Assembly: GCF_000234665.1 (NCBI RefSeq)
Contig: NC_018329.1
Location: 618,489 to 682,488 of the forward strand
DNA: 64,000 nucleotides
Source of the DNA: Leishmania mexicana MHOM/GT/2001/U1103
Taxonomy: Eukaryota; Euglenozoa; Kinetoplastea; Trypanosomatida; Trypanosomatidae
Direction of reading: 5' to 3'
Shown: piece by piece, positions 2,305 to 58,110 of the stretch
Layout of the letters: every line of letters begins with the position of its first letter
Position numbering within the stretch: position 1 is the first letter of the stretch
Program-made: the position numbers and the translations under genes
Notes under the pieces: generated by a model
Told to the model about the DNA's origin: nothing
Databases searched by the model: none
What the model saw: only the letters and a program-made list of their open reading frames with translations

Positions 2305-2784
2305 TGCGAGGGGAGGGAGGGAGGCACGCAGTTGTACATTGCATTCGACTTCACGGAAGAGAGAAGAGCAGGCGAAAAAGAAAAAAAGTTACAGAGAGGG
2401 GGGGGGGGGGAGACACAGACACGTCCAAGTGACACGGAATGGGGGGGGAGGTGTGGGCACTGATGGAGGAGGAGGTGGGGGAGGCTTGTGGAGATTGAGG
2501 GGGGAGGGAAGAGACGGCGTACCCCGTGACGATGTGGGGTAATGCGTTCGGGTGGTATGAAACGAATTCCCTATTTCCTGCACCCTCCGTTGGTCCCCTC
2601 CTCCCCTCCCCTCCGTTTTTCCGTTGTGTGGTTGCGTGCACACGTTGTGCATCAATTTCGCGTGTGTGCGTGGCGGCGAAGACACTTACGTTTTGGCTGT
2701 CCTCAACGCGTCCATTCCTCCGCCCCTACAGCATGGACACAGCGCCACTCCCACTCCCCTCCTCCCAGCTTCCCATCCGGCCCA

Positions 2785-39641: not shown

Positions 39642-40509
39642 ATTCGAGCAGGCGGGGGAGGTTAGGGGAGCGTTCTGCGGCCGCGAACCGAGAGAGGCAC
39701 TGCGGCGTTGGACTGTGGGTGGTGCCGCAGCGCTCTGTGCAACGCGGTGAACGTGTTTGTGGGTGGGTGGAGTGGAGGGATTGGGGTGGGGTTGGCGCCA
39801 TTCCACTGAACACAAGATCAAGGGGGAAGGGTGTGAAAGAAGAGCAGGGCGGAGGCGATGCAGACGCGGAAAAAGGAATCACCGAGAGCCACGCTGCACA
39901 CAGGAAGAGAGAAGGGTGTGGCAGCCATGAAGAGGCTAAACCGCAGGGCACACACACACACACACACACGCACACGATGTGGGGCGATGGGCGCGCGCGT
40001 GTGCAAGAGAGAGAGAGACTTGGTGCGCACTGACACCCGAGCTGTACCGGTGATACTTTTCTGTTTCTTATCCGCGTGTGCCACAGGCCCCACATCGCGT
40101 GGTGCGAAGCAGCGTTAGACACACGCTGGCGCTTCGCCCATCAGGTGGTTGGCACAGACGTGTTCGCAGTAGTTGGTCGCTCCGACGCAACGCCATCCGG
40201 GCCCTGACTGCCGACACCCGTAGCAGTAAACCGCCCTGCACCCTCCCCCACCCCACCACGTCGTAGGCGCTTGACCCTGTCACCACCAACAGTAGCTCGG
40301 CATTCAGCAGGAATAGGAGGAGGAGGGGGACGCACGGGGCCCTGAGATACGACGCACTGAGAGGTGTGTGTGTGTGTGTGTGTGCCCACCACACCCTTGT
40401 CATCCGGGGAGGGCGGAGGTGGCGAGCAAGCGAGAAAACGCCTACGCGCTGCATCTTCCGTGGCAGCACCAACCACCACCAAAACAGCCAAGAAGGCTTT
40501 GCCCTTTGC
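39642..40509. other. Spacer: HscB 3' flank and TPR gene 5' flank
   Basis: Contains the SIDER2-like element at 40093-40418, a CA run at 39951-39976 and purine-rich sequence at 39811-39860 that would be the pyrimidine tract for splicing of the TPR mRNA. No further gene seen. Confidence 0.7.
40093..40418 (-). mobile_element. SIDER2-like element, copy A of a near-identical inverted pair
   Basis: Its reverse complement recurs at 57334-57661. In a by-eye alignment I see only a few differences over 326 bp: one near 40097, one transition near 40122, one near 40413 and a longer TG run in the other copy. It shares diverged blocks with 2785-3168 in the same orientation but lacks about 210 bp between CGTGGTGCGAAGCAGC (40098-40113) and GGTTGGCACAGACGTG (near 40146-40161). 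It lies just after the HscB stop codon, so it should be in that mRNA's 3' UTR. Confidence 0.65.
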
Positions 40510-41364
40510 CTACTCGAGCATGCGCTCCTTCAGATGGTTCAGTGCCGTGGTCACGTACGTCCACTCGTGGACGATGTGATGAAAGGCGCCCATATCGCCG
40601 TCATTCCAGCTCTTGACGGCGTCCTTGAAGTAGCCAACGACGCGGTCCTCGAGGTCGAAGCGGAGCACAGACCACTGCTGACGCACGCCCTCGTCTGACG
40701 AGTCGCCAGCGAAGATCAACTCGTTCATGGCCAGCATCTCCATGAGGAAGTCGTCGCTCATGGGGGCATCGGGTCGCACCTCACGCGCCTTCATGGTGCG
40801 CTGGTCGTCCTCGAACAGCAGCTCCTCCTCCTCTGCTGCACTGAGCGGGCTACCCTTGACTTCTTCGGCCTTCACGAGGCGAGAGAGGTACCGGCAGCGC
40901 GAATACGGCGCCCGCAGAGTCTCGTACGCGGCGTTGGCGTACGTGGAAACATCGGTGCTGCTCTTCGTTTTGTTGGAGGTGCACGCAAACGGCAGCGGCG
41001 ATGACGAGGCCGCGGGGGTAACATCGGCCGCCTCTGCCTGCTGCTGCTGCTGCTGCTGCTGTTGCTGCGCCTGCACCTGCTGTTGGTCGGGGTGCACGAG
41101 ACGCTGGAGGTTGTGGTACTTCTTCTGCAGGGCTGCCACATCGAGGTCGGGGTGCTTGGCAATCCGGAAGAAATGAAAGTAGTTACCTTTTCCCGCATCA
41201 GTGCTGGGCGCTGCCGGGGTGGAGGAGGCGAAGGAGGAGCATCGGCGCTGCTGCTGCGTCATCCAGGGCAGAGAGGCAGCCCAGCACGCGACAGGAGCGT
41301 GGGACCGCACCACGAGACCTTTGAATACCCGCCGTTGCGCGAAGAGAGAGCACCGGGCGAGCAT
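40510..41364 (-). CDS. HSCB: HscB/Jac1-type mitochondrial J-protein for Fe-S assembly
   Basis: A 284-residue protein. The N-terminus MLARCSLFAQRRVFKGLVVR is an arginine-rich mitochondrial presequence. NYFHFFRIAKHPDLDVAALQ starts the J-domain and HPD is at 91-93, the motif that triggers Hsp70 ATPase. The C-terminal part (MSDDFLMEMLAMNEL, then RFDLEDRVVGYFKDAVKSWN) is the HscB three-helix bundle that binds the scaffold IscU/Isu. HscB hands nascent Fe-S clusters from Isu to Hsp70. Right after HPD, ten glutamines (100-109) and a Ser/Ala stretch are inserted before the helix with YANAAYETLRAP. Family proteins have a short turn there. The zinc-binding cysteines of animal HSCB are absent, as in yeast Jac1. 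A Met 30 codons upstream is less likely. Confidence 0.9.
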   Translation of the reverse strand: MLARCSLFAQRRVFKGLVVRSHAPVACWAASLPWMTQQQRRCSSFASSTPAAPSTDAGKGNYFHFFRIAKHPDLDVAALQKKYHNLQRLVHPDQQQVQAQQQQQQQQQQAEAADVTPAASSSPLPFACTSNKTKSSTDVSTYANAAYETLRAPYSRCRYLSRLVKAEEVKGSPLSAAEEEELLFEDDQRTMKAREVRPDAPMSDDFLMEMLAMNELIFAGDSSDEGVRQQWSVLRFDLEDRVVGYFKDAVKSWNDGDMGAFHHIVHEWTYVTTALNHLKERMLE

Positions 41365-42407
41365 CTCGGTGAACCTTGCAACAGAGATGGTCGTCGTGTC
41401 AGCTCGGAGAGGGGAGGGAGGAAGAAGAGGACTCAACTTGGGAGCCGCACGCAATCAAGTAACAGAGCGAAAGAGAAGTGTGCGTGTGCGTGTACATGCC
41501 GGGGGAGCGGAGGGCCGGTTGAGAGGTGGATGGACAGTGGTGGTGCATCCAAGGGGAGGTCATTGTACCAGTTCGCTGTCCCGGCAGCAGTGGGGAGGAG
41601 CGGAAGCGGCGTTCAAGCGGCCGTTATACCAGTTGCGCAGGATGGATACATCCACATACATGCGCATCGCGGACTGGGCGCCCTCTCGTGGCGGGTCTAG
41701 AGAGCGGAGCCGGCGATTCAAAGTGGAGAACCGGAGAAACGCGCAGGGGAGAGAGGCGGGAGAGGCTGCGGCGAGGTCTTCGTGAGAAGCCGCCGCGCGC
41801 ACAGGCACATCCACGACCACATGAAGACGGCAACTGTTGTTAGCGGCAGTGAGTTGTACAGTAGGAAGCGGAAAGACGAAGCAACGAACGTCAAAAGTGT
41901 TTGCAGGGTAGCGGGAAGGAAAGGGAAGGGAAGGGAGGGGGGGGGATGGGGGAACAGCGATGACAGCGGGGGTGATAGTAGCGTGTAGAACATGCGACGA
42001 GAGAAGCAGGACAGTGGGATCCCGCGCACAACCGTGGAGGACAGAGAAGCGAAATGTGGGGGGAGGGGAGGGGGTCAAGCGAGAAGGACGGCGCATGTAG
42101 AGATGATGCTTCCATGAACACAAGAAAGCCTTCCATTATATATACCAAAGGGAGAGAAGTCCTAAAGAAAGGGGGCACACACGCCCGCGAGAGAGGGGGG
42201 GGGTGGGCAACAGTAGCGCCAAACAGTACAGTCCCGTACGTAAACAAAAGGTGACGTGGTGCCTGTCTGTGTGGGAGAGCACGACGGCAGCGGTGGTGGT
42301 GGTGGGATGGGGTAGGGGCGTGAGGAAAGGTAACAAGAAGAAAACACTTTTGTGTTTCTTTTCCGTTTTCTTTTTCATATCAGCCAATCATGCGACACGT
42401 GCGTGTG

Positions 42408-42456
42408 CACACACACACACACACAGATATATATATATATATATATAAATATATAT
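42408..42456. repeat. (CA)n followed by (AT)n
   Basis: CA run passing into AT-only DNA, giving a weakly paired island. Confidence 0.88.
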
Positions 42457-42570
42457 TTTACATACATGCACGTATATGCATACCTCTATGTACATACAGC
42501 CCTCAAGTACAGAACGAGCTGTATCTGTGCATGCACGCCACAACGCGCATCTCCTTTCTCAGCTGCTTCG

Positions 42571-42626
42571 AGGGAAAGGGAGGGAGGGGAGGGAGGGAGG
42601 GGAGGGGAGGGAGGGGGGGGGAAGGG
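42571..42626. repeat. Homopurine GGGA-type tract
   Basis: About 56 bp of nearly pure G/A with GGGA units. On the minus strand it is a long C/T tract in the LRR gene 3' flank. Confidence 0.85.
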
Positions 42627-43079
42627 GACCGTCTGTCTGTGTGTGTGTGTGTGGTACACCTACGACCTAGACGCTCCACGCCATGACGAGGAGGCGAAAC
42701 CGAGAAGACGAGCGAAGAGAGGAAGGACTAGAAGACGGTGCAGCAAGATAGGGGGAAGGGGGGAGGGTTGGGTGGTCTGCGCAAGGGGAGAGCAGCGGCA
42801 TACTTCACACGGGGATCGAAACCTCGCATCATCATCAACGCCGATACATCTTTGCATGAAAGGCGAATACACCAGACCACACCGCAACAAGGAGGATCGT
42901 AGCAGTCGCAGTCACTACCGTCTTGGTGTCAAACCCCACACTTCGTACACGTTGGCAGGGAGGAGGCAGAGCGAAGATCGGTGAGATGGGGAGCAACACA
43001 TCACTTGTGCCATCCACACCCTTGCCTTCCGCCTCCCTTCCGAGCCTCACCTGCCGCTACACGCCGCTCGTGCGACGCG

Positions 43080-46000
43080 CTAACGACGGCCAGTGTATGC
43101 GGCCAGCACCTGCGTCGGGTCAAGGAGACGCAACGCTTCACTCGTTGTCACAGACGGGCCGGCCGCCGCCAGCGCGGCCTCGATGTGCGCAGCGTGCATT
43201 TTGACTGCCTGCACGCGGTGGAAGAGGAGGGGCAGCGTTGCCGCAGCACCGCCGCCCTTCTGACCTGCATGGTCGGCAGTGGCAATGACGCTAGCGGCCG
43301 CCGTCGCCGACGTCGCACGCGTCAACTTTTCCTCCAGGTAGGCGACGCGCGAGCGCACAAAAGCCGGCGAGAAGAGAAGTGCGGTCAGCACCGCGGTGAG
43401 GGTGAGCTGTGTAGCGACCCACTGCCGTGGACGCTGCTGTGGGAGCATCTGCGCGGCTTTCACGGAGGAGCGCGTTTGGGGGCCTGCTGCAGCGGACGCA
43501 GATAAAAGAGACGCGGAAGCCCCGCCGTCGGGGAGGAGGGCCGATGCTGCGCCCCTGACCGGCCGCCTGCTCTTCGCCTCGGCGCTGCCGTTCTCCTCCG
43601 TCGCCAGCAGCGACTCCTTCTTGTTCCGGGGCCCGGTGCTAGAGGAGCGAGGCTGAAGCTCTGCGGTGGTGGCCTTCGACATTGACGCCGCTGCAATGGC
43701 TCGCTCGTGCACGGCGTGGTGCGCCGCAAGAGCGTCGCACATCGACTGCACGCCCTCCTCGGCCACAGGCACCCGCAGCAGCGTTAGCAACGGACCCAGC
43801 ACGTGCGATGCGTACGGGCCGATCGGCCGCACAAGGTGTTGCACCGCCTCGGGGTCCCGCAGGGAAACCGGAGAGACGGAGGTGGCTGCAGCGTTGCCTC
43901 TGGCTCCCGCATTGCTGCTGATTGCGGCCTCCGGAGGGGGTGCCGTGATGGCGGCGCTGCTGCTACTGCTCTTGCGGATGAGGCTGACCGACCCGCTGGC
44001 GTCCTCGATGCTCTTGCCAAGGGCCACTACAACGCCGGGGCTTCCTCCAGCTGTCGCTCCTGCCACCATGTAGGGGCCTGTGAGAAGCTGCCACACCAGC
44101 TGTGGCTCACTACGCAGCGCCGCTCGCGCAGCGTCCAGGGCCGCGGCCGCGGTTGGTACTCCTCCGGCGGCGGTGTCGGCGCCGCCACCACCACGCGTGG
44201 CCACCGAGCCGGGCTTTGTATTGCCTCTGTGTGCAGTTCCCTTTGACGCGGCAACGCATTTTCGGTCGTGCTGGGAGGCAGAGCCGCGCACGTTACCGCC
44301 ACCGCCGCCGGCGGGGCTTCCGACGTTGTCGGAATGTGACAGGAGTGTCATGGCCTGCCTCGCCGCCACGGTGGTGCACACGACCTCGCCGGGTCCGCTT
44401 TCGCTCCCGACGGCGGACCACTCGCGCAGCGGCAGCAGTCGCAGTAGTTCAGCGCCACCGTACTCGCCCTCCAGCGCCTGGAGCTCCTTCAAGGAGTAGA
44501 CGTCGTGCAGCAGCACCAGAATCTCCGTGAGCGCCTCCTGCTGAGTTGTGGAGGGCGAGACCACGCCGATGCAGTTGGGGGACGCTTCTGAGGCCCCGGT
44601 GGCGGCCGGTGAAGCCACAACGGCTCGTGGCGACTTGGCGACGGTTTCCGTGGCACCACCAACCGCAACGCGCACCGTCGCGTCCTCCCACGGCGGCGGG
44701 ATGACGGCATACTTGGTTTCCTGAATGGTACGCAAAGTGCTGTACTCAACAGGAATGCTGGTGGCGGCAGCGACAGTGGACGGCGGCGGCGATGGTGCGA
44801 CATTACGCTGCCCTGACCCTACACGCTCTTGCACAGCGGATAGCTTCTTCAGTGTTCCCAGCGAGCTCTGCCGTGCGGTTACGACGCGGACAACCTGAGC
44901 GGAGGCCTGCAGGGTACGCTGCAGCGTGGTGAGTCGATCAGGTGCCAGCCCCTTCACAGGCAGCAGCCGGCTCACTGCAGGTGGAGAGGCCGCGGCCGGC
45001 AGGAGCGGCGCCATGCCCTTGCATGATGTCGCCGAGCCGCCTCGGACGGTGCGGAAATATAAACTGTCGTGTATCGAGGGCAGCAGTGGGTTAGCGGTTG
45101 CGGCTGAGGGGAGGGGCCCTGATCTGGTGGATGCTGCTGCTGCTGCGAGCTGCGAAGTGGCTGACTCAGGTGTGCCGGCCGTCTCTGCAGACGAGGGAAA
45201 GAGAGGGCGATCAAACGACACCTCGATTATCACGTTCAGCGCCGCTGTGCCACTGCCGACATTCACTTGTGTCGCCGCCGCCGCTGCCGTGATAGTGGTC
45301 GTTGCAGGCGGGACGGACGGTGTCTTGATCGGCTTGCGGCCCGCGTGCAGCGGCGATGACGGGGCTGAGGGACTGGCGGAGCTAGATCCCGACACTCGAA
45401 AGTTAGGGGCAGAGACCAGGAAGCTGCTCTGCGTCTCCGGCCTTTCCACGTTTCCTTCGGCACTCTCCGAAGCCGCCGCTGCCGCCGCCATCTGTGTCCG
45501 TTGCCAGCCATCAGCGGAGAGCGGCATGCCTGGCTGCGAGAGTGTCCAGACAGCGTGAAAGGACTCCCATGTCTCCTCTTGCTGTCGCCAGGCAGCAGCG
45601 GTGCTCTGCGATGCCGCTTCCTGTGCTTGCCGCTGTTGGCGAAGGTACGCCGCGTAGACGCGCTCCAAGTCCTTCGCCGTGAGAGACTTGGCAAAGGGGT
45701 CGCCCGCCGCTCTCAGACGCGTCGTGCAGCTTGGGGAGGTACGTGGTCGAGCGCTGCTCACCGCAGTGTCCGCGGAAGTGGCGGCGCTGTGTGAACGGCT
45801 CTCGTGTGCGCGCCCGTTCCACCGCGTCGGTGCCGCTGCCTCCTCGCGCTCCTTTGGTGTGACGGACTGGCGATCAAGCACCTCCACCTGGGGGAGCGCC
45901 GCTATACATCGCTCGCGGTATCGCGACTCCCCCGTGAGTGGGTTGCCGCGCAGATCCAGAAAGCGAAGGTTTCGCAGCCGCTTCAGCGCATCCAGCACCT

Positions 46001-46574
46001 TGCTGAGGCCTGTCAGCTGATTGTACGCCAGCGACAGGTGCTCCAGGAGGAAGAGGCGCGGGATGTCGGTGTCACCAGCAATATCGCGGATGCGGTTGTA
46101 CGCGGCGTGGAGGTGCGTCAGCTGCCGACATCCGCGGTAAAGGGGAGGCGGTGGCGGGAGAAGGGGGAGCCCATCAGCGGCGGTTATGGTCGAGGCGGGC
46201 GACGATGCACGGAGCGCCGATGGTGGCAAGAGCAGATTGTGGAGGGTTTCGAATGCGTTGTGCTCCAAGACGATGCAGCGCAGGTATTCAAAGCGAAGAA
46301 AGTTGGTGTGCAGTGAGGTGAAGCCGCGGCGGTCGCAGACGTACTCGAGCACCTCCGGCACTGCTGTCGAGGGAATGTTCAGCTCGGCCAGCGGGTCGCA
46401 CACAAGAGAGGCGCCGCTCCTGGAAGCAAGGGATGGTTGAGTACCGTGGCTGCTGCCGCTCAGCTGTGCGGCAACGGGCGCCGACCCGCGGCAGAGTTTT
46501 CTTGCCTGCGGCCTGGCCTCACGACGTAAAATGTCGTGATAGCGCTGCTGCTCGACCGCCCGCATACTCCACAT
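43080..46574 (-). CDS. Leucine-rich repeat protein with long low-complexity tail (1164 aa)
   Basis: Residues about 70-245 form an SDS22-like leucine-rich repeat block: LRCIVLEHNAFETLHNLLL, LTHLHAAYNRIRDI, LEHLSLAYNQLTGL, LRFLDLRGNPLTG. It ends in the LRR-cap sequence YRERCIAALPQVEVLDRQSV. This bidentate arrangement is common in axonemal and cytoskeletal LRR proteins. The remaining 900 residues are mostly Ala/Ser/Gly/Pro runs, with a short conserved-looking helical island around ALTEILVLLHDVYSLKELQA. A terminal region (LTLTAVLTALLFSPAFVRSR, VQAVKMHAAHIEAALA) may be a helical interaction module. No enzyme motif or membrane segment is seen. The function is unknown; a flagellar role is a guess from the LRR type. 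Met4 is an alternative start. Confidence 0.8.
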   Translation of the reverse strand: MWSMRAVEQQRYHDILRREARPQARKLCRGSAPVAAQLSGSSHGTQPSLASRSGASLVCDPLAELNIPSTAVPEVLEYVCDRRGFTSLHTNFLRFEYLRCIVLEHNAFETLHNLLLPPSALRASSPASTITAADGLPLLPPPPPLYRGCRQLTHLHAAYNRIRDIAGDTDIPRLFLLEHLSLAYNQLTGLSKVLDALKRLRNLRFLDLRGNPLTGESRYRERCIAALPQVEVLDRQSVTPKEREEAAAPTRWNGRAHESRSHSAATSADTAVSSARPRTSPSCTTRLRAAGDPFAKSLTAKDLERVYAAYLRQQRQAQEAASQSTAAAWRQQEETWESFHAVWTLSQPGMPLSADGWQRTQMAAAAAASESAEGNVERPETQSSFLVSAPNFRVSGSSSASPSAPSSPLHAGRKPIKTPSVPPATTTITAAAAATQVNVGSGTAALNVIIEVSFDRPLFPSSAETAGTPESATSQLAAAAASTRSGPLPSAATANPLLPSIHDSLYFRTVRGGSATSCKGMAPLLPAAASPPAVSRLLPVKGLAPDRLTTLQRTLQASAQVVRVVTARQSSLGTLKKLSAVQERVGSGQRNVAPSPPPSTVAAATSIPVEYSTLRTIQETKYAVIPPPWEDATVRVAVGGATETVAKSPRAVVASPAATGASEASPNCIGVVSPSTTQQEALTEILVLLHDVYSLKELQALEGEYGGAELLRLLPLREWSAVGSESGPGEVVCTTVAARQAMTLLSHSDNVGSPAGGGGGNVRGSASQHDRKCVAASKGTAHRGNTKPGSVATRGGGGADTAAGGVPTAAAALDAARAALRSEPQLVWQLLTGPYMVAGATAGGSPGVVVALGKSIEDASGSVSLIRKSSSSSAAITAPPPEAAISSNAGARGNAAATSVSPVSLRDPEAVQHLVRPIGPYASHVLGPLLTLLRVPVAEEGVQSMCDALAAHHAVHERAIAAASMSKATTAELQPRSSSTGPRNKKESLLATEENGSAEAKSRRPVRGAASALLPDGGASASLLSASAAAGPQTRSSVKAAQMLPQQRPRQWVATQLTLTAVLTALLFSPAFVRSRVAYLEEKLTRATSATAAASVIATADHAGQKGGGAAATLPLLFHRVQAVKMHAAHIEAALAAAGPSVTTSEALRLLDPTQVLAAYTGRR

Positions 46575-47172
46575 TTGCCACTATTGCGTCCGTGTATGTG
46601 TGCGTGCGTGCGCGTATGGATGCCAGCCTCCTTGAGTCGATGCAGGGAGAGGGATGAAGGGCCGAGGTGGGGATGAAGCGGCGGCGTGCGCAGGGAGCGG
46701 TGGATGGGCGCGCTGAGAGAGAACGTGCATGAGAGAAGCGGGAGGGAAAGAGGAGAGATGGAGCTGGGCGCGGCAGAGGCGGTGCGGCCGAACCACTCTT
46801 GCCTTTTGTCCGCCCTCCCTTGCCCTCGCCACCTGTCGACCTTGCAGAGCGCACATTTCACAGTGGCAAGTACATATACTCATGTGGCGTGCTAGGAGAG
46901 TTTCGGGGATGTGCGCCGCCCTGCTCTTCAACTCCGCGGGTGCGCCTCACTGCAGGGCGCGTCACCAGCTACTTTCCTTCTCCCGCCAAACATGCCAAAG
47001 GAGAAGAGAGGGCGAGGGCGGAGAGGCCGCAAGCCTGAGGCTTTTCCTCGCGTTCCGCCGTGCGTGCTGGTTGGATGGCGCTCGCCGGAACACAATACAA
47101 TGCCTCGCGTGTGAGCACAACCGCGTATACACATACACGTAAAGCCATTTTCTCGCAGCCACGCCTAAACGT

Positions 47173-47210
<38 letters not shown>

Positions 47211-47255
47211 CACACACATCAGGAAGAGCGCCAGTGCTGTCGATTACGTCGACCG
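46575..47255. other. Spacer between LSm8 and the LRR gene
   Basis: No gene seen. A CA run of about 17 units (47175-47209) lies in the LSm8 3' flank. Confidence 0.65.
47175..47209. repeat. (AC)n microsatellite
   Basis: AC run of about 17 units just past the LSm8 stop codon. Confidence 0.9.
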
Positions 47256-47651
47256 TCACCACGACCTCGCTACAGTCGTGGCAGGCGGCATATCCCGTCC
47301 TCGCCAATCCTTCACGTTTGTGCCAGCCTCCTCGTACACGTCGATGGCAGCTATGGAGACCACGTCGGCACCGCGCAGCATCATCACGCCCAGTTGTACT
47401 TCTTCCAGGGGCGGCAGTGCATTGCGTGCAGTGCCACCGCTGCGGACAGCCGTGGAGACATCTTCATCGACCACGCCACCGTTGTCCTCTTCGGACGCGT
47501 CATCGTCGAAGTCGTACGGTGCGCCAGTGCGCTCGACGCAGGACGTGAGTACGATGTTCAGCAGCTGATCGGCTGCGTGGAGTACGCCGACGAGATTACG
47601 GCCATCTACCGTCACCACGGAGACGCGCTTGCGCAGGTACTGGGAGAGCAT
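47256..47651 (-). CDS. LSM8: LSm8, U6 snRNA-binding Sm-like protein
   Basis: A 131-residue Sm-fold protein. Sm1 (about 8-37) reads KRVSVVTVDGRNLVGVLHAA, matching the LSm8 pattern VAVITSDGRMIVGTL. Sm2 (84-103) contains LGVMMLRGADVVSIAAID, where LSm8 has the IVRGDNVAVIGEID segment. LSm8 is the subunit that makes the nuclear LSm2-8 ring, which holds the U6 snRNA 3' end for splicing; cytoplasmic rings use LSm1. An acidic insert of about 40 residues (42-82, DDDASEED) lengthens the loop between Sm1 and Sm2. Human LSm8 has about 96 residues in total. The start MLSQYLRKR fits the family; a predicted splice acceptor at 47714 supports it. In my memory LSm8 and PDH E1-beta are also neighbours in T. brucei. 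Confidence 0.88.
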   Translation of the reverse strand: MLSQYLRKRVSVVTVDGRNLVGVLHAADQLLNIVLTSCVERTGAPYDFDDDASEEDNGGVVDEDVSTAVRSGGTARNALPPLEEVQLGVMMLRGADVVSIAAIDVYEEAGTNVKDWRGRDMPPATTVARSW

Positions 47652-50205
47652 GTGCCGTGCGTAACGTCCGACACGCGGATGGGACTTCGGCAAACTACAG
47701 ACGCACGCGCACACTGAAGGGGGGGGGGGAGTCCCTGGCTGAGTGGGGGGGGGCGTTCTTTTTCTTTTGCGATATGGCAGCGCTCGATTACGTTCGGGTG
47801 TGTGTCGGTCAGCCTCCCCCGGGAGGTGAGCCCACAAATCCAAATCACAACAGCGGCAACACCGTGCATGCTCACTCCGTTGGGATGACCACGTGAGAGA
47901 GAGGGACAGAAAGAGGGGGAGGGCAGAGACGCAGTGGGGAGAGACAGGTGCGCGCGCACACACATATACATGCATACATACAGCCTCGTTGCGTGCTGCT
48001 GGGCCAAAGCACGAGTGCAGTCGCGGCGGCGTGTGCGTTCTCTGCGTTCACAAGCACCTTTCCCCCAAAAATAAACGAGTTGCATACGGCGTGCGCAAGA
48101 GGGAGGGAGGCGTGAAAGTGGAGGGAGGGGTCATGAGAGGCGGTGCTGGGGCGTATGTGCGACGTGTGTTCGTAACCCCAACCCGAACTACAACGCGTTT
48201 GGCCACACGGTGATGCGTCACCGATTCGATTGGAAGAGAGACACGGACTGCGTCGACGACTACTCGGACGACATCAGCGCGACGAATGCGGAGCAGGAAG
48301 AGCGAGGGCAAGCGGGAATGTGTGTGCGAGTTGTCCTTCTCGGCTGCCGCACCGCTGCTGCCTCTCACTCTCCACCTCCATTCGCCTCCAAGTTTCCTCG
48401 ACGCCAAACATACAGATGCACGCATACTCGAACATGTCGTTCTCTGTCGTCGCAATGTGCCTCTCCACATCTCCCCCCATACCGCTCTCTGCACCATCCC
48501 TCGCCCTTTACTGCACCACCCAGACTCCCGAACAGCCGCACTCGTCTGGAAGGAGAGCACAGATTCGTGGTGCCGGCCCACGCGTGTCCACGCCGCGTCT
48601 CTCTCGCTCTCTCTCCGTGTCTGTGCGTACACACAGATGGGGAAGAAGAGAAAACAGAAGGAACGCGGCGGCGGCGGGTGCATCGCGCCCAAAAATCGAG
48701 ACTGTGCTCCCCATCTACCGGGCGTGTGCGTGTCGCATCGCTTACGGGGCTCTGGTGTGTTTGATCGTTAAGTATACCGCTAAAACTTCGCCGCTTTTCC
48801 TCTCTTGGAAGGTGCACGTGTGTGCGGAGTACCTGCATGCGTTGGATGTGTGCGCACAGAGCTCGAGGATGTACATACACGCACGCACGCACACGCACGC
48901 ACGCACATGGAGAGGGAGAGAGGAAGAGACCCCCGCTTTTTCTTAGGTGAAAACCAAACAAAGGAAACGACGCCCGCGGCGTCTGAGGAGCGGCGGCGTC
49001 GCTCTTATCGCCTGCGCTAAGGGTGCGAGGTAGAGGTGTGTGCGTGTGTGTGTGTGTGTGACGTGGGGGAGGTGTGTTACGGGGACAGAGGACACTACTC
49101 GCTCTCTCCAGAGCTGCGTTCTGGTGTCTTGTCAAGGAAGATGCTCACGTTAGCGTTTGCCCCCTTGTCTGCTGGGCGTTGCGCTTCTCTGTTTTCTGGC
49201 GTCCTTTCGGGTCGATATTCAGCTTTAAATGAAACGTGCAGGCGCAACGCGCACACAACACATCGCCGTCGTCATCGGTAGCGCATCCCACCCCATCCCA
49301 TCCCTCCATGGGAGTCGGAGGGGGGCAAGAGGGACATGGGAGGAGGGGGGGCCAGGCGAAGATGAGCCCGATGGTTTAATTTTCATCGAACAACTTCCGT
49401 GCTGGGGATGCTGCTACCCTTACGTCATTCTCTCGCTGCTGCGCTCTGCCTCACTTGTCAGACGCACGCACGCACGCCTGACACGGGGGGAGGGGGAGGG
49501 GGGCACCGAGCACGGGAGAGGGGGGGGGGGTAAATGGGGAGCGACGGAAGGCGAGGCCTTTTGAGGTTCGGGGGAATGTGGGATGCGCGTGCACGTGTGC
49601 CGACTTCGTGTGTCACTCGTCAACGAAGGGCGAGAGGAGGACATACAGCACCACAGTGCGCCATACCCGCCCCGTTCTCTCCTTCCCTATTTCGCACGCG
49701 CACCGTGTGTCAAGACATCCCCAAGCCAGGCAAGAGAACACATGAGGAGGAGAGCGAGAGAGGTCGCACGGAGACAAACCGAACGTGCCGGTAAAGACCC
49801 AGACGAACAGACGGACGCGGGGGGGGGGGAAATGGTAGGATACACACACACACACGGGAAGGGGAAGGGGAAGGGGGGACGCTTACAGGCAGACGGAGGC
49901 GGCAACAACAGGATACAACGTGGTGTGCTGAGAGGTCCCTCTCAGCGCGGATAAAGAAATTCAGCCGCGGACACACAGAGGGAGACGTGATCGACCACGT
50001 ACGTACGGGGTTGGGTGGGCGTGAGGCAACGCATGGGGAAGCACACGCCAGTGCGTGCACGGCGCCTTACCTCCTCTATCTTCTGGTGTCCCCCCTCGCG
50101 CTCTATGCAGGGGGCTATTTCGTCGTTGCTTGGCTTCCTGTAGATTCCCGAGAAGACTTGTAGCCCACTAGAGGAAGCACACACACACGCACGCACGCAC
50201 ACGCT
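47652..50205. other. Long spacer: PDH E1-beta 3' flank and LSm8 5' flank
   Basis: I found no convincing gene in 2.5 kb. Frames such as plus 48230-48946 and minus 48048-48692 have shifting composition and no family resemblance. It contains CA/TG runs (near 49045-49060 and 49842-49856), CACG repeats near 48885-48906, and several G tracts. Most is probably PDH E1-beta 3' UTR. Confidence 0.65.
47714..47736 (-). promoter_or_regulatory. Putative trans-splice acceptor for LSm8
   Basis: On the minus strand a C run of about 10 is followed by TTCAG, the first AG after it, at 47715-47714. It predicts a 5' UTR of about 63 nt before the LSm8 ATG. Confidence 0.5.
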
Positions 50206-51258
50206 TTAACTGAGCACCCGCTTTGCAGCGGCCATGACGTCGGCCACCTGCGGCTGCGAGGCCGTTTCGATATCCTTGCTGTACGGTGTTGGACAGTCGG
50301 CGCACGACACGCGCTCGATCGGGGCATCGAGGTAGTCGAACGTGTCGCTCTCCATGACACAGGCGCAGATCTCAGCACCAATGTTGCACACAGGGAAGGA
50401 CTCATCGACTGTGACCGCACGGTGCGTCTTCTTGATGGAGTTGAAGATCGTCTGACGGTCGAGCGGGCGCAGGGAGCGAAGGTTGATCACCTCTGCCTGC
50501 ACACCCTCTGCGGCGAGCTTCTCAGCCGCCTTCAAGCACAGATCCACACCGCGAGAGAAGCCGATGAGGGTGATGTCCTTGCCCTCGCGCTCAATCTTCG
50601 CCTTGCCGAACGGGATCACAAAGTTCTTGTCCGCTACCTCGTCGGTGACGGGGAAGGACTCGCTGTACAGCAGCTCGTGCTCGAGGACCACCACGGGGTT
50701 ATCGTCGCGGATGGCCGCCTTCATCATGCCGCGGGCGTCCTCGCAGCTGTACGGCGCAATTACCTTCAGACCGGGCACGGACGCGTACCACGGGCCGAAG
50801 CACTGACTATGCTGGGCACCTACACCAGCCGAAGCACCGTTGGGACCGCGAAAGACTATGGGGCACTTCATCTGGCCGCCAGACATATACAGGCCCTTGC
50901 CGGCCGAGTTGACGATCTGATCAATAGCCTGCATGGCGAAGTTGAAGGTCATGAACTCGCACACGGGGCGCAGGCCGCTGAGAGCGGCACCAACGGCCAT
51001 GCCAGCGAAGCCGTGCTCTGTGATGGGCATGTCGATGATGCGGTCCTTGCCATACTTGTCCACAAGGCCCTTGGTCACCTTGTAGGCACCTTGGTATTGG
51101 CCGACCTCCTCACCAATCACAAAGACCGTCTCTTCACGGGCAAGCTCCTCGTCGAGGGCCGAGTGGATCGCATCGCGCACCGTCATGTTGATCGTGGCGC
51201 AGCGCGCCGCCATGGCGGCGGACGCAGAGAAGAGAGCTCGGGAGGCGAAGCGGCGCAT
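50206..51258 (-). CDS. PDHB: Pyruvate dehydrogenase E1 component, beta subunit
   Basis: A 350-residue protein with an arginine/alanine-rich presequence ([20 protein letters not shown]) followed by the full transketolase-type fold. Marker segments are [35 protein letters not shown] with the thiamine-contacting Glu at about 51, [40 protein letters not shown] and [12 protein letters not shown]. It ends [20 protein letters not shown]. It pairs with E1-alpha (not in the window) to decarboxylate pyruvate with thiamine diphosphate in the mitochondrial matrix, feeding acetyl units to E2. Length is standard and no key residue seems missing. Trans-splicing is predicted about 100 nt upstream. Confidence 0.96.
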
Positions 51259-52286
51259 GGCGTTCTCTGTGTGTGTGTTGGCGTGGTTTGGGGAGACGAG
51301 GGAGGGGCCGAGGGTGGCTGCTGTCGGTGATGTGGCGGTGATGATTATTATCGATTAGTACCTTGAGGGAGATGAATGAGGGGGCCAAGGAAGAAAGGGG
51401 GAGGGTATGTGTGCGCTTGTGTGAACTGTGCGTGTATGTGCTTGTAACATGCGAGAATCAATGGAGAGCAAGGGAGTGTGTTCGCGAGAAGATTTTTCGG
51501 GCGAGCAGGGCATGAGGTCAGGGTGGCGATAACCAATGCACATGCACCTGGAATCGCCGAGCATGAAGGAAAGGGTGCTTGTGCGCGCTTGAGGACGCAT
51601 CTGCAGTAAGCTGGGCAAGGGGGAGGGGTGAAGAGTCCGAAACGCGAGAGGGGGGGGGTGCAGAAAGCTGACACATCTCTCACCACTATTCTGCCGCTGC
51701 TGATTACTGTCGCTCCTTCGGTACGCTCATGCCTCTCCCTCTCCCTCTCCCTCTGTTCCCTCCCCCCCTCCCCTGACCTCCTCCATCAGCCTCGTTAGCC
51801 TTCCCATGGCCGTGCCCTCTCGTTGGGCTTTTCGCATTGCCCCTGTGCCACCCACAGCCACCATCAGCGCTTGCGTGTGCCGGCCCCACGCACCTTCTTC
51901 CGCGTTTTCCTTTTGTAGGGCGCATTCTACCCACAACAGGCCGAGATGGAGAGGAGGGGGGGAGGCTGTCTGCCCGTGCTGCAGAGTCACCTGCCTTGGC
52001 TTCTGTCTTCAGTGCACTCCCCCCTCTCTCTGCCTCCCTATCCCTCTCGAATGGCCCGTCATCTCGCACCGTGTTCATCCTTTCACTCAAGGGGCACAGC
52101 CAGAACAACTACCCCACCACCCAAGCACCGCTCACCGCTTACACGGCGTTCAAAAGCCTCTCAAGAGACGCCTCCCGACACACATACACCCACACACAGT
52201 TACAGACGAGAGCCGCCGTTCACATCACCACGTACCTCCTCCTCCTCCCCACTGTGTACAGGAACGGCGCCCTGTACTGCTGCTGC
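51259..52286. other. Spacer upstream of PDH E1-beta
   Basis: No gene seen. Pyrimidine-rich on the transcript near 51378-51405 and CT-rich on the plus strand near 51733-51775. It also holds the 3' flank of the 1570-aa gene. Confidence 0.65.
51362..51405 (-). promoter_or_regulatory. Putative trans-splice acceptor for PDH E1-beta
   Basis: Minus-strand pyrimidine tract (51378-51405) followed by CTCAAG with the AG at 51363-51362, giving a 5' UTR of about 104 nt. Confidence 0.4.
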
Positions 52287-55200
52287 TCAGCGACGTGTGC
52301 GCTTGAAGTCGGCACGATACCGTTTGCTGTCCTTTCGAGGGTTTTGCCAGGGTTTCTCGCCACCATCGCCACCACCACGGTCGTCACGGCTCCTCTTGCG
52401 GTCCTTTTCGCTGCGGCGCTCGTTCTCTCGACGGTCTCCGCGCTTTCTGCGGCCGCTGCTGCTACGCTCCACTGGCGCGGCGGCGGCGGACGAGGCGGTC
52501 GTGAGGGCTTCCGCCGCTCTCGCCGCGGGCGAAGAGGAGGACGATGGCCTCGGGTGAAGGGTAAAGAGGCAGTGAACGTCATCGGCGACGCCGCAGTCGG
52601 TGCGCGCCGCACTTTTCTCCACGACTGCTAGCTGCTGCGCAATGACGTCCATGACGGCACTCCTGCGCCGGGCCTTGAGCTTCTCTACGGTGCTGCGCAG
52701 CTTCTCCACCGTGCTGCGCACGAGCGACAATGGATCACCGAGGTGCTGCAAAACCAGCACGATCTTCCACTCGTCAAGAATACCGTTTCGCAGCGCAATC
52801 TTCTGCACGGCCATGATAACGTCGCCGCACATGTGCTGCACCATGCGGAACGCGTCTGCCTCCGTGTCGGAGAAACAGCGATGATATAGGCCCGCTGCAC
52901 TGGCCTCAGTCAAGAAGCTCTTCTTGTACGGCAGCACAATATCTTGCAGGACACACCGCAGGCAACACACGGAGGACAGCGCCTCGGTGCGGGTGCACTC
53001 AGCTAGAGAGTTCGCGAGCGTGAAGAAGAAGCGCTGGCACATGCGCTGCCGCTCTTGCACACTCATCGTGATGGGCAGATGCACGTCGCTCAGTGCATGC
53101 AGGAGATGGCCGAGCGTGGCGGCGCTGAAAGCGCCGTCCACCGGCGAGATGCGCGCACGCTGAACGAGGGCCTCGTGTACCTGATCCAGGTAGTCGCGCA
53201 GCGTGGCCGGCTTAAGGACGGCTCCTGCAGCGTCGGCGGAGCTGGTGGTCGTGGTCGCCGTAATCGTCGCCTCCTTCGTGTCCTCGGTAGATGCGACGGT
53301 CGTGGCCTTCTCATTTTCTGACGTTTCTCGCTGCTGTTGCAGCAGCAGCAACGCGCGCAGGTCACCGCGGACGGCCTCTCGTAACTCGTGCACAGTCACG
53401 GTTGTGTCTGGAGCACTCTCCGTTTTCAGTTGCTCCACCATCGCGCGGATTCCGAGGAGCGTCTTTGTTGGCGCGTGCGACCCGCACTGAACGGAGAACT
53501 CCCGCAGGAGTCGCTTCGCTGCCGTCTGCACACGTGCAGCGGAGTCCACCTCCTCGTACGTGCAGGCCCAGAACCAAGACAGCCAGCGGTGGCTGCTGCT
53601 GCTTCTGCTGCGCTGCTGCTGCTGCTGCGCGGGTGGCGGATACGCAACACCAGGCGAGCTGACAGCTTCGGCGCTCTCTGTGCTGGCGACGGCGCCTTCT
53701 GACTCAGCAGGGTCCACTACATTGCTGCCCGGCTGCACCTTGACACGATCTCGTAGAGAGAGAAGAAAAGGGTGCGCTACAACGTGGGGCGACAACAGCG
53801 TCGCCGACATCGGGCGCGGAGAATACAGATGCTGGATCACCGTCGCCGCCGCCTCCGCAGACAGGGACAATGATGACACGTTCATCTGCAGCGCACACCA
53901 GCGACACATACCGAAGAACACAGACGTCATCACATCAATCGCCAGGCTGCGCGTCCAGAACAGCCCCGACGCCGTCTTGGCGCTTTCGTGAGGCTCCGCA
54001 AACCGCCCGTTCGCCACCGCTGCCGCCTCCTGCAGAATGGCCAGAAATGGGGCAGAAGACGTGGAGACGGCGGCAGGCGCTGCTGTGACCAGTTCGCACA
54101 AATACCGCTGCGCGGCCTTGTGCGCGTGCCATGCCGACTCCGCCACTGGGGTGTCTTCGGCTCGCCAGAAGTACAGCCGCGGCAGCTCCCACGCATAGGC
54201 CATTGCACAGCCAGAGGGGTACTTGGCCGTCAGCGCAAGACTCACGTCCGCGTCCTCTGCGGTGGCGTAGTCGAGAGCCATGGCGCGCAGCGGCGGCACA
54301 AAGAAGGCGGCGAGGCCGTGGCGCTGCTGATCGATGATGTGATGACGCAGGTACTCGATGAGAGTACGCCCACCCTCGCCGAGAAACGTCTCCAGCGCAG
54401 CGCGCAAGCGAGGTAGCACCGTGGATGGCAGCGTGCGGAAGACGGCTGCAAAGAACATGAAGAGCTCGCTTGTGGCCACCTCGTCACCGGTGTTGCGCAT
54501 GCGTGTGACGCAGGCCTCATCCAGCGCTGCACCGAAGAAGCTCGCGAGCGTTGCGGGGAGGGAGCTAGGCGACGCCCACATGAGCGCGACATCACCGTCC
54601 GCCGTCTCTTCTCCGGCCGTGTTGTCGCCGGCGAGTTCCTGAAAGCGGTCCAGCACGTTCTGCATGGCCTGATCCAGGGATGAAAAGACTCGGTAATGGC
54701 GAGGAAAGTACAGCTCCACGAGCTGCACCGCAGACAGCGGCTCTTCCGTCAGGGCTTTGACGCGCGTGGCGCTACTGGGCGGCTGCGTGGAGAGGTTGGC
54801 GGTGGAGGCGTCTGGCGTGGCGCCAGGATCCCCTGCGCCGCCTTTTTCACGCACCACCGCATCCACACGGACACCCAGCGTCACACTGTTCACTCTGAGA
54901 AGTACCTGAAACACGCGGTCCTGCATCACTGACAGCGGCTGCTGAAGCGCGGCGAAGGCAAGTGGAAGAAGACTGTGGGACTCCGTGCTGTGGGCTTGGC
55001 GATCCGTTCCAACTGCGGCGGCTTGCCCAGACACATGCGCACCCGTTGAGGAGCAGCTGAGGCAGCCCATCACACGAGAGAAACACGCCGCGGCAAATGT
55101 GCAGTCCCGCGCGTGGCGGTGATGCACGCGCAACTGCCGACGTGCCCCACAGGTCGTGTGCGTGAAGAGAGCGTAGCCACCGTCCTGAGTAGCGTGCGTG

Positions 55201-56999
55201 ACGCGGTGCAACTCACGGACGCAGCCTTTCCACGCCTCCAACAAAAGCGGCGCCTGCTTCTCGGCAGACGGTGCGGCACCGTCCGGCGCAGGCGTGAAAA
55301 AAACGCACGTGAGGAAGGCCGTGTACGGGACTATCAGCAGCGTCGTTTCGTCGTAGGTGCTGAGAACGAGCGTGAAAGCCATGGCCTGCTTGCGCAGCCC
55401 CAGCCAAGCCTCCTCGACCTCTGCGAGGCGGCTTGTGCCGTTGCCGCTAGTGTGACCGTCGACGCCCTCCTGCTGCTGTTGTTCTCCCTCGACATTGCCC
55501 TCTTCTTCCATACGCGGTGCCGCCGCGGCCGCCGCCACGGACATGCGTGCGTGCCGTACCATGCGCTGGCAGGCGACCCACCAGCGACTCATCAGCCGAA
55601 GAAGTCGCTCGCATACCTTGTAGGAGGTAAGGACCAGCAGAGGGGCCACATTGTAGTCTACCTTCGTTGGCGTTTCTGAGTGTTGCGGCTGTGCCCGCAG
55701 CGCCGGCGGGAGCTGCACGGCAGCATAGGTCATCGTACAGTCGTCCTCTCCCACCTCCGTGGCGTTGTCGTCGCCGTAGAACTGCATGTTGATGATGGCC
55801 TTCACAACATTGGCAGCGTAGCAAATGTGCGCTGCCGCCGCGGCCGCCGCCGCATCCGAGCTGGCCACGCCAGCAGCAGCATGCTCGGACTGCACGACCG
55901 CGGCCTGCACGAGACTTTGAAGCTGATCACTAAACTCTGAGTGCACCTTGCGCGTGAAACAGGGCAGGTATTCCTCCTGCTCTGACGGAACAAGCTGCAG
56001 CCCTGCCCCTTGCACGAAGGCACCGATGTAGCTCACAAGGCAGAGAGCAGGTGAAGGAATCGGCGAAGCTGATGTTGACACCAAGGCAACCCCGTCTTGC
56101 TCGGCAACACCATCATCAGCACGCTGCTGCTGTTGATAAGCAGCGCGCAGGTACAGCGGCAACATACCAGTGAGCCAGTCGCCGGTGTGAGTGCCTGTAG
56201 CGGCTACGGCGCGGCGATGCTGTCCGCGGCGGGACTTTGTCGCCTCTTCTTCCTCCACGTGTGGCGATGCCGCCGCCGCGCCAGCGGTCGCAAAGCTGAG
56301 AACATGAGTGAGAAGACTGTCCAGCAGCAGTGACAGAGCGCGTGCTACTGGCGCGGCATCTGCCGTCCCGGAGCTCCCCCGGCCTTGTAGATCTGCACTG
56401 CATCCTTCCGCATCGGCTACGGCGTTGCGTGTGCTTGCATCCGTCTCTGCGGCGCCGCGCGCGCCGTCTGTGAATCCTTGCAGGACTGCCTTGAAGAAAG
56501 CGAGGTAGATCTGCTGCTGGAGCGCACGCAGGTGGCGGGCCTGAGCGGCGTCGACGTGGGCGGCTGGCGTCACCTTGGCACCGCTTCTTGCCACCCCCGC
56601 CGCCGATGCCGGCGTCGTGTCATCGGCGGCCTGCTCTGCCTGCTCGGCGGCGCGCTCCTCCCAGGCCCGGGCCATGCACTTCCGCAGCTGCGTGAGAAGG
56701 GGCAGGAGGACGCCATCCCACTTCATATGTTGGTAGAGGTCGCAGGTGCTAACGCTCCTGTTGTGCTGGTACGCGCTGTCGGCACTGCCCTTCCTTGCGG
56801 GGTGCACTTCCCCGATCAGGGGCAGGAGATCATTCTTGTAGGCGAGAACATGATTCGCTGTCTGCTTGGCGATGGCGGAGAGGCAGCTGGCGGCGGCATC
56901 GTCGGCCGTGGCGTCGAGAGGCTCTGCCTCTTCAACAATGCTGCGGTGTGACCACCACCACGGCGCCACATCGCTCGAGGACGCTTGCCCGGCTTCCAT
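52287..56999 (-). CDS. Large protein of unknown function with Arg/Asp/Ser-rich C-terminal tail (1570 aa)
   Basis: The frame runs 1570 residues from MEAGQASSSDVAPWWWSHRS. Composition is protein-like and mainly helical, with long Ala/Gln/Ser/Glu inserts, which argues for a large alpha-solenoid. Examples are AYKNDLLPLIGEVH, RALQQQIYLAFFKAVLQGF, YTAFLTCVFFTPAPD, LVELYFPRHYRVFSSLDQAM and SVCCLRCVLQDIVLPYKKSF. The last ~60 residues are a charged RRKRGDRRENERR and KDRKRSRDDRG type tail, seen in nuclear RNA-processing and export proteins such as THO and cap-binding subunits. I could not match it to THOC2, CBP80 or any other named family, so the link is only a hint. Upstream frame includes retroposon sequence, so this Met is preferred. 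Confidence 0.78.
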   Translation of the reverse strand: MEAGQASSSDVAPWWWSHRSIVEEAEPLDATADDAAASCLSAIAKQTANHVLAYKNDLLPLIGEVHPARKGSADSAYQHNRSVSTCDLYQHMKWDGVLLPLLTQLRKCMARAWEERAAEQAEQAADDTTPASAAGVARSGAKVTPAAHVDAAQARHLRALQQQIYLAFFKAVLQGFTDGARGAAETDASTRNAVADAEGCSADLQGRGSSGTADAAPVARALSLLLDSLLTHVLSFATAGAAAASPHVEEEEATKSRRGQHRRAVAATGTHTGDWLTGMLPLYLRAAYQQQQRADDGVAEQDGVALVSTSASPIPSPALCLVSYIGAFVQGAGLQLVPSEQEEYLPCFTRKVHSEFSDQLQSLVQAAVVQSEHAAAGVASSDAAAAAAAAHICYAANVVKAIINMQFYGDDNATEVGEDDCTMTYAAVQLPPALRAQPQHSETPTKVDYNVAPLLVLTSYKVCERLLRLMSRWWVACQRMVRHARMSVAAAAAAPRMEEEGNVEGEQQQQEGVDGHTSGNGTSRLAEVEEAWLGLRKQAMAFTLVLSTYDETTLLIVPYTAFLTCVFFTPAPDGAAPSAEKQAPLLLEAWKGCVRELHRVTHATQDGGYALFTHTTCGARRQLRVHHRHARDCTFAAACFSRVMGCLSCSSTGAHVSGQAAAVGTDRQAHSTESHSLLPLAFAALQQPLSVMQDRVFQVLLRVNSVTLGVRVDAVVREKGGAGDPGATPDASTANLSTQPPSSATRVKALTEEPLSAVQLVELYFPRHYRVFSSLDQAMQNVLDRFQELAGDNTAGEETADGDVALMWASPSSLPATLASFFGAALDEACVTRMRNTGDEVATSELFMFFAAVFRTLPSTVLPRLRAALETFLGEGGRTLIEYLRHHIIDQQRHGLAAFFVPPLRAMALDYATAEDADVSLALTAKYPSGCAMAYAWELPRLYFWRAEDTPVAESAWHAHKAAQRYLCELVTAAPAAVSTSSAPFLAILQEAAAVANGRFAEPHESAKTASGLFWTRSLAIDVMTSVFFGMCRWCALQMNVSSLSLSAEAAATVIQHLYSPRPMSATLLSPHVVAHPFLLSLRDRVKVQPGSNVVDPAESEGAVASTESAEAVSSPGVAYPPPAQQQQQRSRSSSSHRWLSWFWACTYEEVDSAARVQTAAKRLLREFSVQCGSHAPTKTLLGIRAMVEQLKTESAPDTTVTVHELREAVRGDLRALLLLQQQRETSENEKATTVASTEDTKEATITATTTTSSADAAGAVLKPATLRDYLDQVHEALVQRARISPVDGAFSAATLGHLLHALSDVHLPITMSVQERQRMCQRFFFTLANSLAECTRTEALSSVCCLRCVLQDIVLPYKKSFLTEASAAGLYHRCFSDTEADAFRMVQHMCGDVIMAVQKIALRNGILDEWKIVLVLQHLGDPLSLVRSTVEKLRSTVEKLKARRRSAVMDVIAQQLAVVEKSAARTDCGVADDVHCLFTLHPRPSSSSSPAARAAEALTTASSAAAAPVERSSSGRRKRGDRRENERRSEKDRKRSRDDRGGGDGGEKPWQNPRKDSKRYRADFKRTRR

Positions 57000-58110
57000 G
57001 CTATCGCCTCTCGCTTGGCGTTTGGGGATGTGTTGAGGCTCTGTATGCGCGTGCGCGGCTTGTGCTGCCGTTTCTTTTAGAAGGTTCTCCGCTGTATCCG
57101 CCCCCGTCTGTGCTTGTGTGCGCTCTCCCTGCACGGGTGGGCGTGGGTCGCGCACATTTTGTGTGTAAGCGTGTGGTGTGAGAGACAGAGAGACAGACAG
57201 ATGCAAGGGTGACAGAGCGGTCACAATGAGGAGGTCTCCGCGAGACCCCAAGACGTTATCGCTATCGGCACACGTGGACACAATGCCTCTCCATCTCACC
57301 CGATATATGTGTGTGCATGCATCTTTACGCCCACTCCGTCCTCCCCGGATGACAAGGGTGTGGTGGGCACACACACACACACACACACACCTCTCAGTGC
57401 GTCGTATCTCAGGGCCCCGTGCGTCCCCCTCCTCCTCCTATTCCTGCTGAATGCCGAGCTACTGTTGGTGGTGACAGGGTCAAGCGCCTACGACGTGGTG
57501 GGGTGGGGGAGGGTGCAGGGCGGTTTACTGCTACGGGTGTCGGCAGTCAGGGCCCGGATGGCGTTGCGTCGGAGCGACCAACTACTGCGAACACGTCTGT
57601 GCCAACCACCTGATGGGCGAAGCGCCAGCGTGCGTCTAACGCTGCTTCGCACCACGAGATGCGCCCCCCCCATAGCAGGTCGTGTGGGGGGTCGAGTGGC
57701 ATTGAGCTCACGTTCTACGGCGGGGATATCGATGTGTTAAGTAGAACAAGGCGAACAGTTCCTCGCTTTCACACATGACCCTGCTTGAGTGCGTCAAGAC
57801 GCTCGCAGTGGCCCATTGAGTGCCCCCTCCTCCCTTCCACCGCCTGAAGCCTGTGGAGGGTGAGATAGGGTGGTGGTGGTGGTGGGGTGGGCGGGGATGC
57901 TGTGTGTGTAGGTGCCACTGCTAAGGGTGGCGCTGGTGTGTGTACTGCTGAAGGGGTACTGTATGACATTGTTAACACACACACAAACACGGGCACGGGC
58001 ACGTGAGCAGAAGGCGGTGAAGAGCGCGCACCACCACGTGTGGTCAGCTACGCAGCCTCAACCGACGGACAATCATGTGCATGAGGGCTTTCGCGTAGCC
58101 GGCGTTCGGC
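57000..58110. other. Spacer: 3' flank of the 313-aa mitochondrial gene and 5' flank of the 1570-aa gene
   Basis: Contains the inverted SIDER2-like copy at 57334-57661. The remainder (57662-58110) is GC-rich with GGT repeats near 57869-57891 and no gene seen. Confidence 0.7.
57334..57661 (+). mobile_element. SIDER2-like element, copy B of the inverted pair
   Basis: Near-identical reverse complement of 40093-40418, differing at a few positions and by about two dinucleotide units in its CA/TG run (57368-57391). It carries the same internal junction as copy A and lacks the same block relative to 2785-3168. Copies A and the longer element point along transcription, whereas this one is antisense to it. 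It lies in the 3' flank of the 313-aa mitochondrial gene, about 340 bp upstream of the 1570-aa gene start. Confidence 0.65.

What the first reader, a model, noticed from the sequence alone, without database searches (positions are those of the whole stretch)
40093..57661. Near-identical inverted retroposon pair 17 kb apart brackets LRR, LSm8, PDH E1-beta and the 1570-aa gene
The 326-bp block at 40093-40418 recurs as its reverse complement at 57334-57661. I see only a handful of differences plus a two-unit change in the CA/TG run, while the third copy near 3 kb is far more diverged. That implies very recent copying or ongoing gene conversion. Established work shows that Leishmania amplifies chromosome segments through short repeats, many of SIDER2 type: direct repeats give circles and inverted repeats give linear duplicated amplicons. 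This pair could mediate a linear amplicon carrying HscB, LRR, LSm8 and PDH E1-beta, or invert the interval.
Basis: partly seen in the sequence, partly recalled or inferred. Interest (0 to 1): 0.75.

Follow-up and report, generated by a model that had tools for sequence, protein, structure and literature searches.

The report
Near-identical inverted SIDER retroposon pair
Two remnants of an extinct mobile element lie in opposite directions 17 kb apart on a Leishmania chromosome and are almost identical, most likely because one has recently overwritten part of the other; such pairs are common in this genome and already known as seeds of DNA amplification, so this one is ordinary.

Summary
Window 40093-40424 (+) and 57328-57661 (-) match at 327 of 334 aligned columns (5 substitutions, one 2-bp GT indel), 16,903 bp apart; positions 30-320 of the block carry no substitution. 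Both are SIDER-type (probably SIDER2) retroposon remnants sharing two internal deletions. Each copy keeps its own, different, in-register SIDER 5' remnant just outside the identical block (0 of 5000 controls score as high for either). I therefore favour local gene conversion between two old resident elements.

The pair is not unusual. Of 28 other SIDER loci of this genome, 20 have a same-contig partner at least as alike, and 8 inverted pairs match or exceed it over longer stretches. Published work already describes near-identical neighbouring SIDER2s and linear amplicons formed at such inverted repeats. The amplicon idea is plausible but untested here. In the published model the duplicated arms run out to a telomere (here about 208 kb on the right), so the 17-kb interval would be the centre, not the duplicated part. 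The genome looks like the L. mexicana group (partly recalled).

The parts
40093..40424 (+). Copy A of the near-identical block (C25:658581-658912); profile positions about 83-116 and 301-585; antisense to the minus-strand genes; 86 bp past the stop of the HscB-like ORF
40071..40092 (+). Copy A's own SIDER 5' remnant outside the identical block (profile 61-82, directly abutting it)
   Evidence: 6.2 bits, 0 of 5000 controls; 5.2 bits, 3 of 5000 controls and 0 of 2000 shuffles; with the whole profile: -3.9 bits, E 0.69, not significant
57328..57661 (-). Copy B of the near-identical block (C25:675816-676149); sense to the minus-strand genes; 450 bp past the stop of the 313-aa ORF and 329 bp before the start of the 1570-aa ORF
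57692..57727 (-). Copy B's own SIDER 5' remnant outside the identical block (profile 20-53, in register)
   Evidence: 8.6 bits, 0 of 5000 controls; 8.5 bits, 0 of 5000 and 0 of 2000; with the whole profile: -0.5 bits, E 0.063, 9 of 2000 controls as high
40122..40126 (+). Junction of the larger internal deletion in copy A (profile about 117-300 missing); the same junction in copy B lies at 57629-57633
2701..3155 (+). Third SIDER in the window, profile 6-427, 3' truncated, without the A/B deletion; not a member of the A/B subfamily
40510..41364 (-). HscB-like J-protein ORF (284 aa)
   Evidence: DnaJ E 0.0036 and HSCB_C E 0.0038, both below Pfam's cut-offs; PDB 3bvo HscB E 6.5e-07
43080..46574 (-). 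LRR protein ORF (1164 aa)
   Evidence: LRR_9 E 4.4e-09
47256..47975 (-). Sm/LSm-domain ORF (239 aa as listed; the homologous part is residues 109-239); closest named LSm in PDB is LSm8
   Evidence: LSM E 2.7e-13
50206..51258 (-). Pyruvate dehydrogenase E1 beta ORF (350 aa)
52287..56999 (-). 1570-aa ORF with no Pfam family

Best explanation
A and B are two old, transpositionally dead SIDER retroposon copies (probably SIDER2) in the spaces between genes of one transcription unit. Recently, one has overwritten the other by ectopic gene conversion over roughly 330 bp, from inside the 5' signature region to the 3' end of the element. Shown here: near-identity, two shared internal deletions, separate SIDER 5' remnants outside the block in both copies, a sharp step in identity at the block's edge, and substitutions confined to its edges. 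Inferred: that conversion rather than another copying process did it, its direction, and its date.
For:: the 5 substitutions fall at block positions 5, 29, 321, 327 and 328; positions 30-320 differ only by a 2-bp microsatellite indel; both copies lack profile positions about 117-300 and 493-526; the 130 bp 5' of the block in each copy scores against a SIDER 5' profile that contains no C25 sequence (A 6.2 bits, B 8.6 bits; 0 of 5000 control 130-mers as high), in the register expected if each is a continuing element. A and B lose similarity abruptly at the block edge; no third genomic copy above 75% among the matches returned (40 of 294 candidates were scored); near-identity among same-contig neighbours is usual here. 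(PMC11520807 section 7): in L. infantum nearby SIDER2s are more alike, and the authors found this is not due to gene duplication.
Against: The 5' remnants are short and weak: with the whole-element profile the flanks alone fall below the inclusion threshold, and one search gave 3 of 5000 controls for A. In the six other near-identical pairs put through the same test, at most one member showed SIDER sequence on a given side, so conversion is not shown to be the general cause. L009, which first looked like a mosaic, turned out to be a truncated element once it was left out of the profile. No second species or strain was available to polarise or date the event.
Confidence: 0.65

Rival explanations
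1. Recent segmental copying: a roughly 330-bp piece of one element was inserted at the other site during break repair, with no resident element there.
For: The block starts inside the element rather than at its 5' end; in several other pairs one member carries only an interior piece (L025, L014 and L007), which looks like partial copying.
Against: Both A and B have SIDER-like sequence in register upstream of the block, which a blind insertion would not give.
Confidence: 0.2
2. Recent retroposition by a still active element.
For: The 3' edge of the block coincides with the family's 3' end (profile 585-589).
Against: Internal block start; no target-site duplication noticed by eye (not tested statistically); PMC2323293 passages put LmSIDER2 divergence from consensus at 12-40% and call the family extinct.
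Confidence: 0.05
3. The pair is kept identical because it serves as a selected amplification cassette for this interval.
For: Length and identity (334 bp, 97.9%) pass the criteria of Ubeda 2014 (0.2-2.5 kb, at least 85%) and resemble the 374-bp, 98% RS1-RS3 repeats of the L. major M210/M230 linear amplicons.
Against: Such pairs are usual here (23 of 50 other near-identical pairs are inverted). Nothing ties these genes to a selected amplicon: the paper search (3 of 4 terms required, 8 of 10 papers listed) showed none on this locus, going by titles and abstract starts. The interval would not be the duplicated part in the published model.
Confidence: 0.07
4. Assembly artefact.
For: Only one assembly was available, with 545 contigs.
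Against: The copies differ at 5 sites plus an indel, have unrelated flanks, and similar pairs occur on many contigs.
Confidence: 0.03

Closest known systems
SIDER2 subfamilies with chromosomal proximity (Requena 2008, PMC2424063; Ferreira 2024, PMC11520807)
   Same: Near-identical copies a few to tens of kb apart on one chromosome, in both orientations; subfamily L of L. infantum chromosome 32 has two 602-bp copies, d and r, at 1195026 and 1219109.
   Different: A/B is shorter than a full element because of two internal deletions, and shows in-register SIDER sequence outside the identical tract in both copies. The words 'gene conversion' do not occur in PMC11520807; in PMC2424063 I read the abstract and sections 5, 7 and 9 only.
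RS1-RS3 repeats of the L. major M210/M230 linear amplicons (described in PMC2424063 section 7)
   Same: SIDER2-like inverted repeats of about 0.37 kb at 98% identity.
   Different: Those lie at observed rearrangement points; for A/B no rearrangement is known.
Repeat alignment groups (Ubeda 2014, PMC4028189)
   Same: A/B meets the length and identity criteria; 242 of the 507 groups in L. major have two members.
   Different: That catalogue covers L. major, L. infantum and L. braziliensis; its tables were not read, so I do not know whether this locus is in it.

Membership tests
SIDER2 retroposon | Dispersed GC-rich family of about 550 bp in spaces between genes | tested here: met
   Profile of 633 positions from 12 loci on 8 contigs of this genome; block GC 64% against 61% for the window. 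A and B themselves are shortened by internal deletions. The gene context was checked for A and B only.
SIDER2 retroposon | Subfamilies of at least 85% identity lying close together on one chromosome | tested here: met
   A and B: 97.9%, 17 kb apart, next relative at most 75%.
SIDER2 retroposon | Two tandem 79-bp signatures at the 5' end (SIDER1 has one; PMC4035085 passage) | tested here: inconclusive
   The signature letters were not in any text I could read. A conserved 5' segment is present in part. A published 5' primer of one LiSIDER2 fits copy A with 3 edits (0 of 1000 controls), and 19 of 34 elements with 4 or fewer edits (140 of 1000 controls); the other three primers show no enrichment, and B does not match at that place. 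SIDER1 is not excluded.
SIDER2 retroposon | A-rich 3' stretch and target-site duplication (present only in some members) | tested here: inconclusive
   Flanks inspected by eye: a short A-rich run after A, none clear after B, no convincing duplication.
SIDER2 mRNA-decay element | Intact second 79-nt signature in sense orientation in a 3'UTR | tested here: inconclusive
   B is sense and A antisense to the minus-strand ORFs; both lack profile 117-300, which may remove part of the second signature, whose position was not mapped.
Repeat pair competent for amplification (Ubeda criteria) | Noncoding repeat, 0.2-2.5 kb, at least 85% identity on one chromosome | tested here: met
Repeat pair competent for amplification (Ubeda criteria) | Junction molecules detected | not testable with these tools
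   No reads or other strains held.

The most novel reading that the evidence does not exclude
Ectopic gene conversion between neighbouring resident SIDERs, and not retroposition or gene duplication, produces the published rule that SIDER2 copies are more alike the closer they lie. It would keep renewing pairs long and identical enough for homologous recombination, so the amplification-ready repeats of Leishmania would be self-maintaining.
Probability: 0.3. Interest if true: 0.5.

Novelty: new member of a known kind. Interest (0 to 1): 0.2.

Why it matters
By itself, little: it is one more inverted SIDER pair. If conversion really homogenises resident neighbours, it would explain a documented but, in the texts I read, mechanistically unexplained feature of Leishmania genomes (proximity equals similarity), and the supply of repeats used for reversible amplification. 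The A/B pair is a usable test case because its tract edge lies inside both elements.

Tried and rejected
Mosaic L009: sliding identity suggested that L009 (C18) is a full-length element converted only in its 3' half. With the C18 members left out of the profile, its 5' 295 bp no longer matched, so it is a truncated element and the mosaic claim was dropped.

Conversion as the general cause: envelopes suggested nested tracts in several pairs, but the stricter flank-only test found SIDER sequence on the same side in both members for 1 of 7 pairs, A/B itself.

Whole-profile flank test: one search was not significant for either flank; the 5'-only profile was made afterwards, so its significance is partly post hoc.

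Rfam search of 39500-41000: two matches under E 1, both below gathering scores. The better one, EBv-sisRNA-1, covers the part of the block with the GT run and the other an upstream CA-repeat stretch; I take both to be simple-repeat matches.

tRNA scan: none. Published SIDER2 primers as an independent label: one of four informative. Literature: 'SIDER' with 'gene conversion' and 'Leishmania' gave 6 papers; by their titles, abstract starts and term counts none is about SIDER conversion, and passages were read in one of them (PMC4413820). 'SIDER2' with 'concerted evolution' gave 1 paper, where the phrase concerns genes and gene arrays. These searches cover only the held open library.

Sampling limit: the 28 comparison loci are the best-scoring relatives of A that were fetched, not a random sample. 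Two elements without a close partner are 2701-3155 (best 82%) and L026 (best 78% over a stretch).

Full report
What is there. The window is G000:C25:618489-682488 of a 32.0-Mb, 545-contig genome. Contigs C8 and C20 reach at least 1.66 and 2.44 Mb. A 32-Mb genome with 34 chromosomes is reported for L. mexicana (PMC9279504 passages); that the L. mexicana group has fused chromosomes 8/29 and 20/36 is recalled, not from a call. I take the genome to be of that group.

The pair. A (40093-40424, +) and B (57328-57661, -) agree at 327 of 334 columns with a spacer of 16,903 bp. The five substitutions sit at block positions 5, 29, 321, 327 and 328; between 30 and 320 the only difference is one GT unit of the microsatellite. 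Outside, similarity stops abruptly on both sides. No other copy among the 43 matches returned exceeds 75% over more than a 43-bp fragment (40 of 294 candidates were scored).

What kind of element. A profile made from 12 related loci of the same genome, none on C25, covers 633 positions. A matches positions 47-116 and 301-585, B 7-115 and 301-589; both also lack about 493-526. So A and B share two deletions. The 3-kb 'third copy' is a separate SIDER (2701-3155, profile 6-427) without the larger deletion, with relatives at 80-82% elsewhere on C25. Filing as SIDER2 rests on size, GC, dispersal and local subfamilies; I could not compare with a published SIDER2 consensus or signature. Of four published LiSIDER2 primers one gave support and three gave none. 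SIDER1 is not excluded.

Conversion or insertion. If B were a fresh insertion of part of A, or the reverse, the recipient's flank should not carry SIDER sequence in register. It does in both: 130 bp 5' of the block scores 6.2 bits (A, profile 61-82, abutting the block) and 8.6 bits (B, profile 20-53, with 30 bp left to the block, as the register requires). None of 5000 control 130-mers from the window scored as high for either. A first version gave A 3 of 5000 and B 0 of 5000, with 0 of 2000 shuffles each. The whole-element profile on 250-bp flanks was not significant (A -3.9 bits, E 0.69; B -0.5 bits, E 0.063, reached by 9 of 2000 controls). I judge that both sites held old SIDERs and that the block was homogenised later. 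In the six other pairs put through the same test, both-sided evidence was absent, so I do not claim this for the genome at large.

How ordinary. Among 28 other SIDER loci (L003-L030), 20 have a same-contig partner at 97.9% or more, 7 at about 96-97.9%, and one (L026) has none above 78%; some of these matches are shorter than A/B (L009: 217 bp). Of 50 other same-contig pairs with at least 90% over 180 bp, 23 are inverted (orientation). Eight of those are at least as alike as A/B over 433-524 bp, and five of the eight lie within 20 kb, for example C21:691754/704690, 496 bp, 100%, 12.9 kb apart. On C25 itself three direct copies at 31.6-64.6 kb are 98.5-99.3% alike. These loci were chosen by similarity to A, not at random.

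Published background. SIDER2 subfamilies of at least 85% identity cluster on chromosomes of L. infantum in both orientations (PMC2424063, abstract and sections 5, 7 and 9). In L. infantum 275 of 311 SIDER2 clusters lie on one chromosome, and nearby copies are more alike (PMC11520807 passages and section 7). 1,926 repeats form 507 groups in L. major, 242 of them with two members (PMC4028189 section 7 and passages). Linear amplicons arise at inverted repeats and need MRE11 (PMC4256157 abstract and outline). An inversion flanked by SIDERs is reported on L. infantum chromosome 32 (PMC2689281 section 8).

The amplicon reading. In the model of PMC4028189 annealed inverted repeats prime synthesis to the telomere. 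On C25 (883,937 bp) the arms would be 207,788 bp (right) or 658,580 bp (left), giving linear molecules of very roughly 0.43 or 1.33 Mb with the A-B interval once, at the centre. Nothing here shows that it forms. Inverting the interval would set its ORFs against the rest: of 16 window ORFs of 300 aa or more, 14 are on the minus strand and the other two overlap minus-strand ORFs.

LRR, LSm domain and PDH E1 beta are confirmed. HscB-like is supported by PDB 3bvo (E 6.5e-07) and by two sub-threshold Pfam matches. LSm8 is the closest named LSm in PDB at E 6.3e-06, after a protein called only 'Sm domain-containing protein'. The 1570-aa ORF has no Pfam family.

Verdict. Real, well observed, probably a conversion tract in two resident SIDERs, and ordinary for this genome.

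Noticed in passing
C25:223767-224100 (+) and C25:250185-250518 (-): Two SIDER hits with equal query range and identity to the 2701-3155 element, in opposite strands 26 kb apart: possibly another inverted pair on this chromosome. The sequence could not be fetched.
   Followed up: partly
L004 (C21:691754) and L003 (C21:704690): Inverted SIDER pair with 496 bp at 100% identity, 12.9 kb apart: a more extreme case than the one reported.
   Followed up: partly
L033-L037 region, C25:31656-64639: Three direct SIDER copies 98.5-99.3% alike within 33 kb.
   Followed up: partly
L025 (C34), L007 (C33), L014 (C13): SIDER copies near-identical to neighbours over an interior piece only, with one or both element ends missing; such pieces lacking the 3' end are hard to explain by retroposition.
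   Followed up: partly
window 47256-47975: The Sm-domain ORF as listed has about 108 residues before the homologous part; the real start is probably further in.
   Followed up: no
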